DNA of 64,000 bases from Hymenobacter nivis (GTDB lineage: Bacteria; Bacteroidota; Bacteroidia; Cytophagales; Hymenobacteraceae): assembly GCF_006439025.1 (NCBI RefSeq), contig NZ_RCYZ01000006.1:62001-126000 (forward strand), in the 5' to 3' direction. The notes under the pieces were generated by a model. The model was not told the origin of the DNA. It worked only from the letters and a program-made list of their open reading frames with translations, and did not search any database. Within the stretch, counting starts at the first letter, position 1. Each line of letters opens with the position of its first letter. The position numbers were made by a program, and so were the translations under genes. Positions 9,668 to 15,145 of the stretch are shown piece by piece.

Positions 9668-10108
9668 TCAGCCAACGGCTTGGCAAAACTGGCAAGTGCC
9701 TGAAAGTAAGTAGTCGCGCCGCTCGGCCTGGAAGCCGCCGGGCAGCGTCACGGCCGGAATGGCCACCTGGCTCAGGCAGTACGTGTGGGCGCAGGTGCCG
9801 CACTTGAAGTGCACGTGGTTATCAAAGTGAGCCTCCGCGCTGCACTCGATGGAACACGCTGCGTAGCGCAGCACGTCCGAATCGTCGATGACGCGGTGTA
9901 TAAGGCCGCTTTGCTCGAAGCTTTTGAGGGTGCGGTACAGGGTGATGCGGTCGGTGCCGGGCCCCGTTTCCTGCTCAATCTCGGCCCCGGTGAGGGCGTA
10001 GCCCTTGCCCGCCAGGGCGGCCAGCACGGCGCGGCGCACGGGCGTTTGGCGCAGCCCGTGGCGGGTGATGGTTTGGGCAAGGCGGTCGGGGGCGGCGGGA
10101 GCGGGCAT
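9668..10108 (-). CDS. Fur-family transcriptional regulator (Zur-like candidate)
   Basis: DNA-binding metalloregulator of 146 residues. The N-terminal winged helix contains TDRITLYRTLKSFEQSGLI, the family recognition-helix region (about residues 52-70). The C-terminal dimerisation domain has HFDNHVHFKCGTC with Cys103/Cys106 and a second pair Cys139/Cys142, giving a structural zinc site. The usual Fur HHHDH cluster is reduced to spaced His residues (95, 98, 100), so Zur or PerR function is possible. The ATG at 10108 is chosen because the upstream in-frame sequence has no regulator-like content. A perfect 7-1-7 palindrome typical in form of Fur-family operators lies 1.6 kb away (11740-11790) beside a TonB receptor locus. 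Confidence 0.8.
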   Translation of the reverse strand: MPAPAAPDRLAQTITRHGLRQTPVRRAVLAALAGKGYALTGAEIEQETGPGTDRITLYRTLKSFEQSGLIHRVIDDSDVLRYAACSIECSAEAHFDNHVHFKCGTCAHTYCLSQVAIPAVTLPGGFQAERRDYLLSGTCQFCQAVG

Positions 10109-10205
10109 GGGGCGAAGTACGGAAAAGGAGAAGCGTGCGCTGCCCCACCCCACCAAAACCACCGCCGGCCGCGAAGGGTTTCCGGGGGGTGCGGCCGTGG
10201 GGGCC

Positions 10206-10646
10206 CTATCCGGCCAGCCACTCGGCCTGCAGGCGGCGCACGGCCGCGTCGGAGCCGGTGAGCCAGTGCAGGGCCGCGGCGGCATCGTCGAAAAACTGAA
10301 ATTGGAAGCTGCGCAGGTGGCTGGGGCCCAGCATGTTTTCCATCTTGGCCCAGTTGTGCAAGTCGTACTCGTTGTCGAACACCATGGCGGCCTGCAGCAG
10401 GCATGCCTGCCGGAGGATGCCCGGCACCCAGTGCTGCATCAGCCAAATCTCTTCGGTGACGGAGGTGGGCGGCATCCCCGTGAAATCGACCAGCACCCGC
10501 GTGGCCTGGTATTCGGCCAGTAGGGCCAGCCCCCGCATAAACGCCGGCCGGGTGTGGTCTTCCGAGGGCACCGCCCACTGGAAGCGCAGCAGGCGCAGTT
10601 CCGCGTCGGCCTGCGCCACAAGCGAATCGACAACGGGAAGAAGCAT
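10206..10646 (-). CDS. STAS/SpoIIAA-like hypothetical protein (paralogue 2)
   Basis: Protein of 146 residues that aligns end to end with the product of 8983-9486. Shared landmarks are a Trp near residue 24, a VLVDFTGMP strand, IWLMQHWVP, a Gln in the following helix, FQFQFFDD and AALHWLTG. No signal peptide or membrane segment. The shared landmarks with wide divergence elsewhere suggest an old duplication rather than recent copying. It lies 97 bp upstream of the Fur-family gene on the same strand and could be co-transcribed with it. Function unknown. Confidence 0.6.
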   Translation of the reverse strand: MLLPVVDSLVAQADAELRLLRFQWAVPSEDHTRPAFMRGLALLAEYQATRVLVDFTGMPPTSVTEEIWLMQHWVPGILRQACLLQAAMVFDNEYDLHNWAKMENMLGPSHLRSFQFQFFDDAAAALHWLTGSDAAVRRLQAEWLAG

Positions 10647-10756: not shown

Positions 10757-11668
10757 TTACGCTGCCCAGCGCCGCATTTGGGTGATGAACAGCCGGCTTA
10801 GTCCCGCGCCCACGACATTGCCGGCGGCCATGGCCTGCACCAGCTGGTGCAGGGGCGAGCAGTTATCGCCCAGGGCGTACACGCCGGGCACGGTGGTTTG
10901 GTTTTGCGCATCAATTTGCAGCAAGTTGTTCTCCGTGAGGGCGCAACCCAGCTGATCGGGCAGCGCGCTGGCCTGCTGCCAGGGCAGCCGGGCGTACAAA
11001 ACCGCCGCGGCCGCCAGCCGCCCATCGGCCAGGCGCAGGCCCTGGAGCTGACCCCCGGAGTGCGCTACGGCGGCCACGCGCGTCTCCTCCACAGGCACGC
11101 GCCAAGCGGCCAACTGCGCCCGCACGGGGGCCCCAAACGTGGCCGGCCCGTTGGTGAAAACCGTCAACTCGCGCGTCCAGTTAAGGAGCAGCTGGGCCAC
11201 GTCGGCCACCTGGTCGCCGTTGTGCCAGAGGCCGGTGGGGCGGTCGGCCACCTCGTAGCCGTGGCAGTAGGGGCAGTGGATGATGCTTTTGCCCCAGCAT
11301 TCGGCGAAGCCGGGCACGGGCGGCAGCTCGTCGCGCAGGCCCGTGGCCAGCGCCAGCACCTCGCCCCGGAAGCTGCCGTGCGCGGCTGTGCCGATGGTAA
11401 ACGTGCCGTCGGGCTGCCGCTCGGCCGCCGTGGCTTCGGCGGCGAGCAGCTGCACGGTGGGGTAGGGGGCCAGCTGCTGGCGGGCCTGGGCCGCTAGGTC
11501 GGCGGGGGCGTCGCCGTCGTGCAGCAGCAGGTTGTGGGCGTGGGGCGCGAAGCGGTTGCGCGGCAGGCCCGCGTCGATGACCAGCACGCGGCAGCGGGCC
11601 CGGCCCAGGGCCAGGGCGGCGCTCAGCCCGGCGTAGCTGCCGCCCACAATGATGACTTCGTATAACAC
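10757..11668 (-). CDS. thioredoxin-reductase-like NAD(P)/FAD oxidoreductase
   Basis: Flavoprotein of 303 residues. The FAD motif GGSYAGL begins at residue 9. A redox-active CPYC pair (Cys132/Cys135) sits in the sequence HCPYCHGYE, the thioredoxin-reductase-like arrangement. A C-terminal ALGDNCSP segment completes the FAD site. The NADPH Rossmann motif between them is weak, so this belongs to the broad family of TrxR-like proteins (including AhpF-like and HcbA-like oxidoreductases) rather than a certain TrxB. The start region is divergent from the His-rich protein/TonB receptor genes, with a 51-bp palindrome between them. Confidence 0.8.
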   Translation of the reverse strand: MLYEVIIVGGSYAGLSAALALGRARCRVLVIDAGLPRNRFAPHAHNLLLHDGDAPADLAAQARQQLAPYPTVQLLAAEATAAERQPDGTFTIGTAAHGSFRGEVLALATGLRDELPPVPGFAECWGKSIIHCPYCHGYEVADRPTGLWHNGDQVADVAQLLLNWTRELTVFTNGPATFGAPVRAQLAAWRVPVEETRVAAVAHSGGQLQGLRLADGRLAAAAVLYARLPWQQASALPDQLGCALTENNLLQIDAQNQTTVPGVYALGDNCSPLHQLVQAMAAGNVVGAGLSRLFITQMRRWAA

Positions 11669-11739
11669 AGGAGTGATAGAAAATGGGTTGGGCGAGGTAG
11701 AAATAGGGCGTTTCAGGGCCCCGATGAGATTATAAAGAT

Positions 11740-11790
11740 AACAGCGGTTTTATTAAATGCAACTTAGTTGCATTTAATAAAACCGCTGTT
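11740..11790. promoter_or_regulatory. 51-bp perfect palindrome with a 7-1-7 core; candidate Fur/Zur-type operator
   Basis: Arms 11740-11764 and 11766-11790 are exact reverse complements around a single T. The core TGCAACT-T-AGTTGCA is a 7-1-7 inverted repeat, the geometry known for Fur, Zur and PerR boxes, and is embedded in an AT-rich extension (ATTTAATAAAA). It lies in the divergent region, 72 bp upstream of the oxidoreductase start and about 120 bp before the TACCTTTG element of the other side. As RNA it would form a very stable hairpin, so an attenuator or REP-like role cannot be excluded. Confidence 0.6.
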
Positions 11791-11874
11791 TACGGCCGCA
11801 CCAACTGTGTGGCGCTAGTGCCTATCGGTAAGCAAGGGACGGGCTTAGCCGGTTGCCGTAAGGAAGAATGCTTG

Positions 11875-11914
11875 CTGCAACTGAGCGCAATTATGTTGCA
11901 GTGTTATACCTTTG
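11875..11914 (+). promoter_or_regulatory. promoter (-7 TACCTTTG) with overlapping TGCAAC/GTTGCA half-sites
   Basis: TACCTTTG at 11907-11914 matches the Bacteroidota -7 consensus. Immediately upstream, TGCAAC (11875-11880) and GTTGCA (11895-11900) form an inverted pair sharing the half-site of the nearby 51-bp palindrome, placed where a repressor would block RNA polymerase. This supports control by the same regulator. Confidence 0.5.
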
Positions 11915-11982
11915 GGGCCCCGGTGCGCTGCCGGCCTGCGGGCCGTGCGGGCCACCGTGCTGCTGCCTTACCCGCGTTGCCC

Positions 11983-12330
11983 GTGCTGTTGCGTCGCCAA
12001 TTCTGCGCTGCTTTCCTGCTGCTCTGCTTCGTGCGGGTGCTGCTGCCGGAGGCTTGGGTGCTGGCGCTGCACGCCCACGCGCACACCACGGCCGAGCCGG
12101 CGCGCCGCGCCCACCTCGGCCCGGCCAAGGGCAAGGCCCTGCTGAGCAGCCAGCACCAGCACTGCCACGAAGACTCACTCTACGACGCGGTCTTCCAGCC
12201 GGCGGCGCCGGTGGTGGTGCCGGGGCCCCGGCACTCGGCCGTGGTGGGGCTGCGCCGGCTGTTTGCGCCCTCGGTGTGGGCCGAGGCCGTGGCGGCGCAG
12301 CGCTGCCTGCGGGGGCCCCCAGTGGCGTAG
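11983..12330 (+). CDS. small His-rich secreted/membrane protein of metal-locus type
   Basis: About 115 residues from a GTG start. TTG 11977 is also possible, and an ATG at 11893 lies upstream of the predicted transcription start. A hydrophobic N-terminal segment (FCAAFLLLCFVRVLLPEAWVL) is followed by HAHAHT and, in the second half, a HQHCHED motif. This resembles small His-rich proteins encoded next to metal-related TonB receptors, and metal binding at the envelope is an inference. It precedes the TonB receptor gene by 163 bp on the same strand and probably shares its promoter. I do not recognise a named family. Confidence 0.55.
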   Translation: MLLRRQFCAAFLLLCFVRVLLPEAWVLALHAHAHTTAEPARRAHLGPAKGKALLSSQHQHCHEDSLYDAVFQPAAPVVVPGPRHSAVVGLRRLFAPSVWAEAVAAQRCLRGPPVA

Positions 12331-12493: not shown

Positions 12494-15145
12494 ATGGGTA
12501 ACCACGCACGACTCAATAAATACGCATTGCCGCGTTTGGCGGCTTCTGCTTTCTCCCGTTTGGTTTTGGAGAAATTGCGGGAAGGCTCCGGTCCTTGGCC
12601 GGGGCTTTCTTGCGCGGAAGCGGGCCGGCCGCGGCTAGCATTCCGGCCCGCGCTGGGGGCCCTGGGTGGCCTGCGTTTGGTAGCCGTCAATACGTTGCTG
12701 CTGAGTGGACTGGCGCTGCACGCCGGGGCCCAAAATGCGGCCCCCGCGCCGCGTGCCCGGCCGGCCGCCGCCGCCGCCTTCACCGGCCACGTGGCCGACG
12801 CCGCCACCGGCGAGGCCGTGCCCGGGGCCACCGTGCTCTTCACCGACCTCAAGCAGGGCACGGCCACCGACGGGGCCGGTAATTTCAGCTTTGCCAACCT
12901 GCCGCGGGGCCGGTTTGGGGTGCAGATTCGCTCGCTGGGCTACACCACCGTAAGCCTGACCGTGGACACGGGCGCGGGCCAGCCGCTGGCCGTGAAGCTG
13001 AGCCCGGCGGCCACCGAAATTGGCCAAGTAGTTGTCACGGGCGTGTCAGCGGCCACCGAGGCGCGCCGCTCGCCGGTGCCCACCACCGTCATCGACCGCA
13101 CCCGCCTCAACCAAACCTCGGGCACAAACGTGATTGACGCCATCGCCCATACGCCGGGCGTGAGCCAGATCACCACCGGGGCCGCCATCAGCAAGCCGGT
13201 GGTGCGCGGGCTGGGCTACAACCGCGTGACGACCCTGAACAACGGCGCCAAGCAGGAGGGCCAGCAGTGGGGCGACGAGCACGGCATCGAAATCGACGAG
13301 TTCAGCATCGACCGCGCCGAGATTATTAAGGGCCCTGGCTCGTTGCTGTACGGCTCCGACGCCATGGCCGGCGTCATCAACTTCCTGGCCCCCGAGCCCA
13401 TCGCCGAGGGCCACATCACCGGCTCGGCCACGGCCAACTACCAGACCAACAACCGCCAGCAGGGCTACTCGTTCGAAAACGCGGGCAACCTCAATGGCCT
13501 GAACTGGCTGGCCCGCGGCACCCGCAAGGTGGCCGGCGACTACCAAAACCGCTACGACGGTCGCGTTTTCAACTCGGGCTTCAACGAGTGGGACGCCAAC
13601 GGCTACGTGGGCCTGAACAAAAGCTGGGGCTACTCGCATCTCACCTTCAGCACCTTCAACCAACAGTTGGGCCTGATCGAGGGGGCCCGCGACTCAGCCA
13701 GCGGGCGCTTCGTGCGCGACTACTTTATTGACGGGGCCCTGGTGTCGGTGCCGGTGGCCAACACCGGATTCAGCGGCTACGGGCTGGCTGTGCCGCGCCA
13801 GCAAATCAACCACTTGCGGTTTGGTACCGACAACAGCTTCATCCTTGGCGACCGCGGGGCCCGGCTGGCCTTGCAGGTGAACTACCAGCAGAACCTGCGC
13901 CGCGAGTTTGGCAACGCCCTCGATCCCGCCGAAACCAACCTCTACTTCCAGCTCCGCACCCTCGACTACGCCCTGCGCTACTACCTGCCCGAAATGGCCG
14001 GCTGGAACCTGACCGTGGGCACCAGCGGCCTGCACCAGCAAAACCGTAACCTGGGCCAAGAATTTCTCATTCCGGGCTACGTCATGAACGAGGCCGGCGT
14101 GTTCGGCGTGGCCAAAAAGACCATCGGCAACCTCGACCTCAGCGGCGGCCTGCGCTACGACGTGCGCCGCATCGGGGCCGATGCGCTGTTTTTAGATACC
14201 GACGGCCGCCCCACAATAGCTGGGGCCCCCGATTCGGAAACCAAGTTCGGCGGCTTCCGCAGCACGTTTAAAAACTACAGCGGCAGCCTGGGCGCGGCCT
14301 ACAACCTGAGCGACCGCCTCACGGTGAAGGCTAACCTGGCGCGCGGCTTTAGGGCCCCCAACATTGCCGAACTGGGCTCGAACGGCCGCCACGAGGGCAC
14401 CATTCGCTACGAAATCGGCCAGTCCGACCTCAAGGCCGAAACCAGCCTGCAGGTGGACGGCGGCATCAGCTACGCCACCGACCACGTGCGCCTGACCGTC
14501 GATGCGTTTGAGAACAGCATTGACAACTACATCTTTACGCGCCGCATCCTCAACCGGGCCGGCACCGACTCGATGACCACGGCCACGGCCGAAGACCCCA
14601 GCGTGGGCGTGTACGAGTACGCCCAGGGCCGCGCCCGCCTGATCGGCGGCGAGGCCACGTTCGACGTGCACCCGCACCCGCTCGATTGGCTGCACTTCGA
14701 GAACTCGTTTTCGATGGTGCGCGCCCGCCAGCTGGGCGTGAGCGACGCCGAGCGCTACCTGCCCTTCATCCCCGCCGACCGCCTCCAGTCGGAGCTGCGC
14801 GGCAACTTCCGCCGCCAGGGCAAGCGCCTCACCAATAGCTACGTGCGATTCCAAATGGAGCACACCTTCGCCCAGGACCGCTACTTCGCGGCCTTCGATA
14901 CCGAAACTGCCACGCCCGGTTACACGCTCTTCAACGCCGGCGTGGGCACCGACGTGGCCGACGCCCGGGGCCGCACGCTGTTCTCGCTCTTCGTCACGGC
15001 CAACAACCTGTTCGATGTGGCCTACCAAAGCCACCTCAGCCGCCTCAAATACGCCGACCTAAACTACACCACCGGCCGCATGGGCGTCTTCAACATGGGC
15101 CGCACGGTGAGCTTTAAAGTAGTGGTGCCGCTGAGCTTCAAGTAA
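12494..15145 (+). CDS. TonB-dependent outer-membrane receptor
   Basis: 883 residues. After an unusually long N-terminal leader, the hydrophobic core of a signal peptide appears near residues 60-78 (ending AGAQ), so translation may really begin further downstream at an alternative codon. A carboxypeptidase-regulatory-like beta domain (GEAVPGATV, about 108-116) precedes the plug (from about 185; VIDAIAHTPGV, GPGSLLYGSDAMAGVINF) and a 22-strand-type barrel containing RGFRAPNIAELGSNG. The gene follows a His-rich small protein and lies near a Fur-family regulator, which suggests uptake of zinc, iron or another metal complex. The protein ends in Phe-Lys rather than a terminal aromatic residue. Confidence 0.9.
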   Translation: MGNHARLNKYALPRLAASAFSRLVLEKLREGSGPWPGLSCAEAGRPRLAFRPALGALGGLRLVAVNTLLLSGLALHAGAQNAAPAPRARPAAAAAFTGHVADAATGEAVPGATVLFTDLKQGTATDGAGNFSFANLPRGRFGVQIRSLGYTTVSLTVDTGAGQPLAVKLSPAATEIGQVVVTGVSAATEARRSPVPTTVIDRTRLNQTSGTNVIDAIAHTPGVSQITTGAAISKPVVRGLGYNRVTTLNNGAKQEGQQWGDEHGIEIDEFSIDRAEIIKGPGSLLYGSDAMAGVINFLAPEPIAEGHITGSATANYQTNNRQQGYSFENAGNLNGLNWLARGTRKVAGDYQNRYDGRVFNSGFNEWDANGYVGLNKSWGYSHLTFSTFNQQLGLIEGARDSASGRFVRDYFIDGALVSVPVANTGFSGYGLAVPRQQINHLRFGTDNSFILGDRGARLALQVNYQQNLRREFGNALDPAETNLYFQLRTLDYALRYYLPEMAGWNLTVGTSGLHQQNRNLGQEFLIPGYVMNEAGVFGVAKKTIGNLDLSGGLRYDVRRIGADALFLDTDGRPTIAGAPDSETKFGGFRSTFKNYSGSLGAAYNLSDRLTVKANLARGFRAPNIAELGSNGRHEGTIRYEIGQSDLKAETSLQVDGGISYATDHVRLTVDAFENSIDNYIFTRRILNRAGTDSMTTATAEDPSVGVYEYAQGRARLIGGEATFDVHPHPLDWLHFENSFSMVRARQLGVSDAERYLPFIPADRLQSELRGNFRRQGKRLTNSYVRFQMEHTFAQDRYFAAFDTETATPGYTLFNAGVGTDVADARGRTLFSLFVTANNLFDVAYQSHLSRLKYADLNYTTGRMGVFNMGRTVSFKVVVPLSFK

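What the first reader, a model, noticed from the sequence alone, without database searches (positions are those of the whole stretch)
11740..11790. 51-bp perfect palindrome
Arms of 25 bp with a single central base are much longer than needed for a dimeric repressor, and they are flawless in an intergenic region. This implies either selection for two stacked operators, a strong RNA hairpin, or a recently inserted palindromic element.
Basis: seen in the sequence. Interest (0 to 1): 0.5.

Follow-up and report, generated by a model that had tools for sequence, protein, structure and literature searches.

The report
Zinc-repressor operator inside mirrored palindrome
The 51-bp palindrome is a probable zinc-repressor (Zur) switch whose two flanks are mirror copies of each other, and in related bacteria the flank letters change while the mirror symmetry often stays, pointing to a copying process that keeps palindromes perfect.

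Summary
The palindrome is real: 25-bp perfect arms, one central base, 11740-11790, between divergent genes. Its centre, ATGCAAC-N3-GTTGCAT, is a Fur-family-type box. In relatives it lies before COG0523 GTPase, MerC-like, ZIP-operon, TonB-receptor, Fur-family and above all thioredoxin-reductase-like genes (at most 1 mismatch in 43 of 70 upstream regions; reversed control 0 of 70), and before znuA in two Campylobacterales loci: a probable Zur operator. It holds the -33 TTG of a promoter whose -7 (TATCTTTA, 11733-11740) lies 19 bp away, so the arm is the promoter spacer. Of 37 exact-motif sites, 23 have perfect arms of 17-33 bp; outer letters differ between species, yet symmetry stays and ends near the -7. 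This is not Zur-specific: 863 kb of the same genome hold 27 perfect palindromes with arms of 20 bp or more (31/Mb; 0 in 200 kb of E. coli), mostly terminator-like, 24 of them single-copy in that sample. Best explanation: a working Zur operator whose arms are made identical again and again by replication template switching. Stacked operators and a mobile element are not supported; selection for an RNA hairpin or cruciform is not excluded. Zur control and the copying mechanism are inferences.

The parts
11740..11790 (.). 51-bp perfect palindrome (25-1-25)
11757..11773 (.). Zur-type box ATGCAAC-TTA-GTTGCAT (7-1-7 TGCAACTTAGTTGCA at 11758-11772); the only exact match in the genome
   Evidence: exact motif in 32 of 120 genomes of the genus, own included, and 115 of 395 of the class sample
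11760..11762 (-). -33 TTG of the promoter of the leftward gene, inside the box
   Evidence: the -33 TTG consensus is recalled
11741..11759 (-). 19-bp promoter spacer; most of the left arm of the palindrome
11733..11740 (-). -7 element TATCTTTA (consensus TAnnTTTG)
   Evidence: consensus from PMC9723704 passages
11766..11790 (.). right arm, the exact mirror copy; no -7 match on this side at the tested spacings
10757..11668 (-). thioredoxin-reductase-like FAD/NAD(P) oxidoreductase (Pyr_redox_2), probable target gene
   Evidence: below the TIGR01292 cut-off; box within 700 bp upstream in 43 of 70 ortholog loci at most 1 mismatch
9668..10090 (-). Fur-family regulator, probable Zur (true start not fixed)
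   Evidence: PF01475 (on 9668-10285); nearest solved chains Fur/Zur type; paralogs in 14 of 77 site loci, two of them the loci the queries came from, and 0 of 80 control loci
11809..12330 (+). ORF for a small His-rich protein (start uncertain; no Pfam match), beside the TonB receptor also in L017 and L018
12494..15145 (+). TonB-dependent receptor (ZnuD model 120.5 bits, cut-off 950: not assigned)
11885..11901 (+). weak possible second box, GCGCAATTATGTTGCAG; matches at this level are expected by chance (mean 2.46 in shuffles)
11907..11914 (+). TACCTTTG, possible -7 for the rightward genes, at the offset (+14) seen in config II relatives
   Evidence: read; offset

Best explanation
The centre is an operator for a zinc-sensing Fur-family repressor (Zur). 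With zinc bound, the dimer would sit on ATGCAAC-N3-GTTGCAT and cover the -33 element of the promoter of the thioredoxin-reductase-like gene (inferred; no binding or expression data). The outer arms are not a binding site: they are the promoter spacer and its mirror copy. They stay identical because one arm is now and then copied onto the other, most simply when a replicating strand folds back at the operator palindrome and switches template (quasipalindrome correction). Letters in the arms drift, but a change is either copied across or lost. Copying stops being tolerated at the -7 element, which would explain why symmetry ends there. The same process would explain the many long, mostly single-copy palindromes in this genome, most of them terminator-like. 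Shown: palindrome, motif, gene contexts, promoter geometry, symmetry without sequence conservation, sharp edges, genome-wide excess. Inferred: Zur as the binder, zinc as the signal, template switching as the cause.
For: Operator: exact motif in 32 of 120 genomes of the genus (own included), reversed pattern in 1 of 120; 115 of 395 in the class sample, reversed pattern in 11 (my count from the table). In 70 upstream regions of TRX-reductase-like genes the best match has 0 or 1 mismatch in 43 and 2 in 3; in the reversed sequences the best is 3 or more in all 70. Contexts by Pfam: cobW in L128, L134, L135, L139, L140, L023; MerC in L129, L130; Zip in L137; FUR in L129, L142, L177; ZnuA in L005, L006. 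Fur paralog in 14 of 77 site loci (12 of 75 without the two loci that gave queries), 0 of 80 control loci. -7 match (TA and at least 5 of 6 consensus letters) at an allowed offset at 21 of 23 long-arm and 7 of 14 short-arm sites, against 145 of 4600 shifted centres. Symmetry: arms of 17-33 bp at 23 of 37 sites; pairing arms of different sites gives 17 of 2520. Complementarity falls from 0.63 at position 25 to 0.34 at 26, where the window-type -7 starts. Generality: 27 palindromes with arms of 20 or more in 863 kb of this genome, 24 without a second copy there; 31/Mb here, 25 in a congener, 15, 10 and 0 in three more distant genomes, 0 in E. coli (5, 3, 2, 0 and 0 palindromes in 200 kb each). 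Complementarity beyond the first mismatch is 156 of 640 (0.24) in the own genome. One terminator-like palindrome is kept in one relative with outer arms altered on both sides in step. Outer-arm GC 0.56, flanks 0.55. Process known: PMC7202029 passages, PMC8794818 abstract and Discussion.
Against: No pedigree or dated event shows a copying step. The 63 two-sided and 0 one-sided differences are by construction, since only positions inside contiguous perfect arms of both sites were compared. 14 of 37 sites have short contiguous arms (7-13 bp); outside the genus 50 of 53 boxes do (under 17 bp), some of them inside ORFs and probably chance. 27 of 70 TRX-reductase upstream regions lack a box with at most 1 mismatch, and 88 of 120 genomes of the genus lack an exact one. 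Four of six mirrored config II arms end just past the -7, which could mean selection for symmetry. First mismatches are often G-T on the sense strand, which an RNA hairpin would also give. SbcD and XseA are present, so loss of these does not explain an excess. Of two own palindromes placed in both relatives, the second (arm 20) has no counterpart in either.
Confidence: 0.58

Rival explanations
1. The symmetry is kept by selection for an RNA hairpin that ends transcripts reading in from the upstream gene: a combined terminator and operator.
For: Stable fold, z = -10; terminator-like matches on the - strand; at seven relatives' sites the upstream ORF is tandem and ends 27-250 bp from the palindrome (my reading); first mismatches are often G-T on the sense strand.
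Against: In the window and in L017 and L018 the flanking genes diverge, so no upstream transcript is expected to cross it. Outer arms are not GC-enriched. A terminator needs a much shorter stem than 25 bp (general knowledge).
Confidence: 0.15
2. The symmetry is kept by selection at the DNA level: a symmetric two-way promoter, or a cruciform that hides the promoter.
For: In six config II sites both -7 elements are mirrored, and four of these arms end at position 21 or 22, right at or after the -7; L143 has two perfect -7 elements.
Against: Most config I sites lack a second -7; terminator-like palindromes in the same genome show the same long extensions.
Confidence: 0.13
3. The box belongs to another metal sensor of the Fur family (for example nickel), not Zur.
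For: The nearest solved chain by sequence is 3eyy, named a putative iron uptake regulatory protein; no metal data exist here.
Against: cobW (COG0523), Zip and ZnuA contexts.
Confidence: 0.1
4. Two stacked or nested operators.
For: Arm length alone.
Against: Outer letters are not conserved.
Confidence: 0.02
5. A recently inserted palindromic mobile element.
For: Perfect arms.
Against: No second copy; the same site holds the same core in relatives with other arms.
Confidence: 0.02

Closest known systems
Zur operators (7-1-7, 9-1-9 or 23-bp boxes; review PMC6103462, passages read)
   Same: 7-1-7 inverted repeat on the promoter; targets of the kinds named there (COG0523, Zn importers, TonB receptors)
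   Different: Half-site TGCAAC was not in the passages I read; embedded in much longer perfect palindromes; a TRX-reductase-like gene is a recurrent target
Quasipalindrome-associated template-switch mutation (E. coli; PMC7202029, passages read)
   Same: Imperfect inverted repeats are corrected by an intramolecular template switch
   Different: Here inferred from natural sequences at operators and terminator-like palindromes; no mutation event observed
Template switching creating and maintaining RNA hairpins (PMC8794818, abstract and Discussion read)
   Same: Multi-base compensatory changes; perfect stems in one event
   Different: That work concerns RNA genes; here a DNA operator/promoter, where RNA pairing has no evident role
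Bidirectional intrinsic terminators
   Same: 18 of the 27 long palindromes of this genome have a run of 4 or more A in the left arm, the terminator form
   Different: The window palindrome lies between divergent genes and covers a promoter

Membership tests
Zur/Fur-family operator | inverted-repeat box of 7-1-7 type | tested here: met
   TGCAACTTAGTTGCA
Zur/Fur-family operator | same box before zinc-homeostasis genes in several lineages | tested here: met
Zur/Fur-family operator | Fur-family gene linked to boxes | tested here: met
   14 of 77 site loci (12 of 75 without query loci) against 0 of 80 control loci
Zur/Fur-family operator | zinc-dependent binding and repression | not testable with these tools
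   needs EMSA and RT-qPCR
Quasipalindrome template-switch product | perfect arms with abrupt ends | tested here: met
Quasipalindrome template-switch product | arms change together between relatives | tested here: met
   the counts are conditioned on perfect arms
Quasipalindrome template-switch product | a copying event seen on a pedigree | not tested
   no strains of one species were compared
Bidirectional intrinsic terminator | lies downstream of a gene or between convergent genes | tested here: not met
   genes on either side diverge
Palindromic mobile element (REP/MITE type) | several copies in the genome | tested here: not met
   whole genome, core; 863 kb
Rfam RNA family | match above the gathering score | tested here: not met
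   8 matches listed, all below their gathering scores

The most novel reading that the evidence does not exclude
In this lineage inverted repeats of any function (operators, terminators) are seeds that a fast arm-copying process extends into long perfect palindromes and keeps perfect, so regulatory DNA evolves in mirror-image pairs, bounded only by the next constrained element such as the promoter -7. A promoter spacer can then be copied across an operator, and a whole mirrored promoter can arise in one step.
Probability: 0.45. Interest if true: 0.75.

Novelty: new variant of a known kind. Interest (0 to 1): 0.55.

Why it matters
Symmetry kept without sequence is usually read as a sign of RNA structure. 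Here it appears at a DNA operator where no RNA is expected, so covariation alone could mislead. The lineage offers tens of natural sites per megabase (31/Mb with arms of 20 or more) where the rate and limits of arm copying could be measured. It also gives a usable candidate Zur box for the class (ATGCAAC-N3-GTTGCAT). My literature searches showed no paper with it, but I saw only the listings (3 of 3, 12 of 5,098 and 10 of 2,008 papers) and passages of two of the listed papers.

Tried and rejected
Stacked operators: rejected, outer letters vary. Mobile palindrome: rejected, no second copy. Rfam search: 8 matches, all below their cut-offs, six of them animal microRNA hairpin models. Loss of SbcD or XseA as cause of the excess: both genes are present. 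GC-rich stem as a sign of terminator selection: not seen. Sigma-70 scan: one match, but the promoter class differs; the TAnnTTTG type was used instead. Other 1-mismatch boxes in the genome: one (L098) precedes a TonB receptor and is a decayed quasi-palindrome; the other two lie inside ORFs and look like chance. A plasmid search with the receptor did not name the organism. Literature searches: listings only except the papers cited. The 12 papers listed (of 3,160) hold the word Hymenobacter 0 times (that genus name is my recall), so it is uninformative; the 12 listed (of 75) show none on operators extended by template switching.

Dropped before counts: Campylobacterales loci L004-L006 were left out of the 37-site count and of the palindrome scan. 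L142 (another genus) is in the 37 but not in the per-position table. L123 (cut by a contig end at 13 bp) counts as short and is left out of the 36 sites of the cross-site control. L113 (25 bp with one mismatch) also counts as short. The pair list (12 pairs) was chosen by me. Only TRX-reductase hits with E below 1e-75 were taken (a capped list) for the 70 upstream regions. One search tried 5 own palindromes; 3 could not be placed in both relatives.

Full report
OBSERVATION. The 51-bp palindrome at 11740-11790 is exact. It lies between a leftward thioredoxin-reductase-like gene (10757-11668) and rightward ORFs for a His-rich protein (from 11809, start uncertain) and a TonB receptor (12494-15145). 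The promoter type fits Bacteroidota; any genus name is my recall, not a call.

THE CORE IS AN OPERATOR. TGCAACTNAGTTGCA occurs once in the genome and in 8 of 120 genomes of the genus, own included. Relaxed to ATGCAAC-N3-GTTGCAT (A or T at the ends), it is found in 32 of 120, the reversed pattern in 1 of 120, and in 115 of 395 genomes of a class sample, the reversed pattern in 11 (my count from its table). In 70 upstream regions of TRX-reductase-like genes (orthologs with E below 1e-75) the best match has 0 mismatches in 19, 1 in 24, 2 in 3 and 3-5 in 24; in the reversed sequences it has 3 or more in all 70. A scan of named genomes with a longer form gave 3 stretches: Malaciobacter, Poseidonibacter and an uncultured Campylobacterales. 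In two the boxes lie just before ZnuA genes (Pfam). In the third the box lies between the end of a TonB-receptor gene and the start of a porin gene. In the genus and the class the sites precede cobW/COG0523 GTPases (six loci), MerC-like genes (two), a methyltransferase-ZIP pair, Fur-family genes, TonB receptors and TRX-reductase-like genes (Pfam). Fur-family paralogs lie in 14 of 77 site loci (448 kb), two of which gave queries, and in 0 of 80 control loci (1.6 Mb). The window has its own Fur-family gene 1.7 kb away. 7-1-7 boxes and such targets are known for Zur (passages of PMC6103462). [quoted passage not shown] Some class sites are inside ORFs and probably chance.

THE PROMOTER. On the minus strand the TTG of the half-site GTTGCAT is followed after 19 bp by TATCTTTA, a match to the Bacteroidota -7 consensus TAnnTTTG (PMC9723704 passages; the -33 TTG is recalled). 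A -7 match at an allowed offset is found at 21 of 23 long-arm sites and 7 of 14 short-arm sites, against 145 of 4600 shifted centres. There are two layouts: config I with the -7 at +24 to +27 from the centre (window type, +25), and config II with the -7 at +14, mirrored on both sides in six sites.

SYMMETRY WITHOUT SEQUENCE. Of 37 distinct exact-motif sites, 23 have contiguous arms of 17-33 bp and 14 have 7-13 bp. The arm letters differ between species and between target genes, even where the gene is the same. Pairing arms from different sites gives arms of 17 or more in 17 of 2520 cases, against 23 of 36 real. Complementarity over 36 genus sites is 0.69-0.92 from position 9 to 22, 0.63 at 25, 0.34 at 26 and near background from about 29, so symmetry ends about where the config I -7 starts. 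In 12 pairs of related sites that I chose there were 132 equal, 63 two-sided and 0 one-sided positions; the zero is by construction, because only contiguous perfect arms were compared. Exceptions: L113 (one mismatch, T-G), L020 (arm 17, then G-T twice), L018 (T-G at 23), L131 (decayed), L098 of the own genome (core decayed, outer stem kept). Outside the genus 3 of 53 boxes have arms of 17 or more (L183 24, L194 24, L197 17).

GENERALITY. In 863 kb of the own genome (window plus 40 fetched stretches) there are 80 perfect palindromes with arms of 13 or more, against 3 mirror-repeat controls; 27 have arms of 20 or more, up to 42. They are mostly terminator-like: 18 of the 27 have a run of 4 or more A in the left arm. 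Of 54 (of 80) with an A-run stem, 15 continue symmetrically for 6 or more nt beyond the A-run. 24 of 27 have no second copy in the sample. Densities of arms of 20 or more per Mb: own 31.3, congener G077 25, G127 15, G491 10, G532 0, E. coli 0 (the last five from 5, 3, 2, 0 and 0 palindromes in 200 kb each). Beyond the first mismatch 156 of 640 pairs are complementary, i.e. random. One own terminator-like palindrome (arm 31) has an ortholog in G018 (arm 36) whose outer arm differs on both sides in step, while G077 has none there; a second (arm 20) has no counterpart in either relative; three more could not be placed in both.

MECHANISM. The simplest account is a working operator plus a mutational process that copies one arm onto the other. 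Quasipalindrome template switching is known in E. coli (PMC7202029 passages) and has been proposed to create and maintain RNA hairpins (PMC8794818 abstract and Discussion). A passage of PMC4060949 cites an excess of short inverted repeats in coding sequences explained in this way. It predicts arm letters that drift, sharp ends, independence of gene orientation and extension of terminators as well as operators; all four are seen here. It does not by itself say why this lineage has so many; SbcD and XseA are present.

RIVALS. RNA hairpin or terminator: good fold and terminator-like matches, but the window genes diverge and the outer stem is not GC-enriched. DNA symmetry under selection (two-way promoter, cruciform): suggested by config II arms ending at or just past the mirrored -7; not excluded. 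Stacked operators and mobile element: not supported.

VERDICT. A new variant of a known kind: a probable Zur operator-promoter wrapped in a mirror-copied palindrome, one case of a genome-wide tendency.

Noticed in passing
window 10757-11668; L178, L182, L188, L194, L195, L197: A thioredoxin-reductase-like FAD oxidoreductase is a recurrent Zur-box target in the class sample; its role in zinc shortage is unexplained.
   Followed up: partly
L023, L132, L140, L141: A small putative lipoprotein gene, with repeats of the type DHxxMExDHxxME in L023 and L141, lies beside Zur boxes; the L132 ORF has no Pfam match.
   Followed up: no
L164, L165, L166: Putative lipoproteins (DUF4625 in L164), with HHH stretches in L164 and L165, lie beside the box in other families of the class.
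   Followed up: no
L178, L186, L191: Paired boxes 36-39 bp apart in one intergenic region, as if for two dimers.
   Followed up: no
L204:18715-18760: Another operator-like perfect palindrome (arms 23, loop 0) just upstream of an ORF, without the Zur core.
   Followed up: no
L123 (G085:C20 start): The contig begins inside the palindrome, 13 bp from its centre: a probable assembly break at the hairpin.
   Followed up: no
L038; G018 and G077 segments: A GTCATGCTGAGC-type inverted repeat sits in intergenic regions of congeners, perhaps a dispersed element.
   Followed up: no
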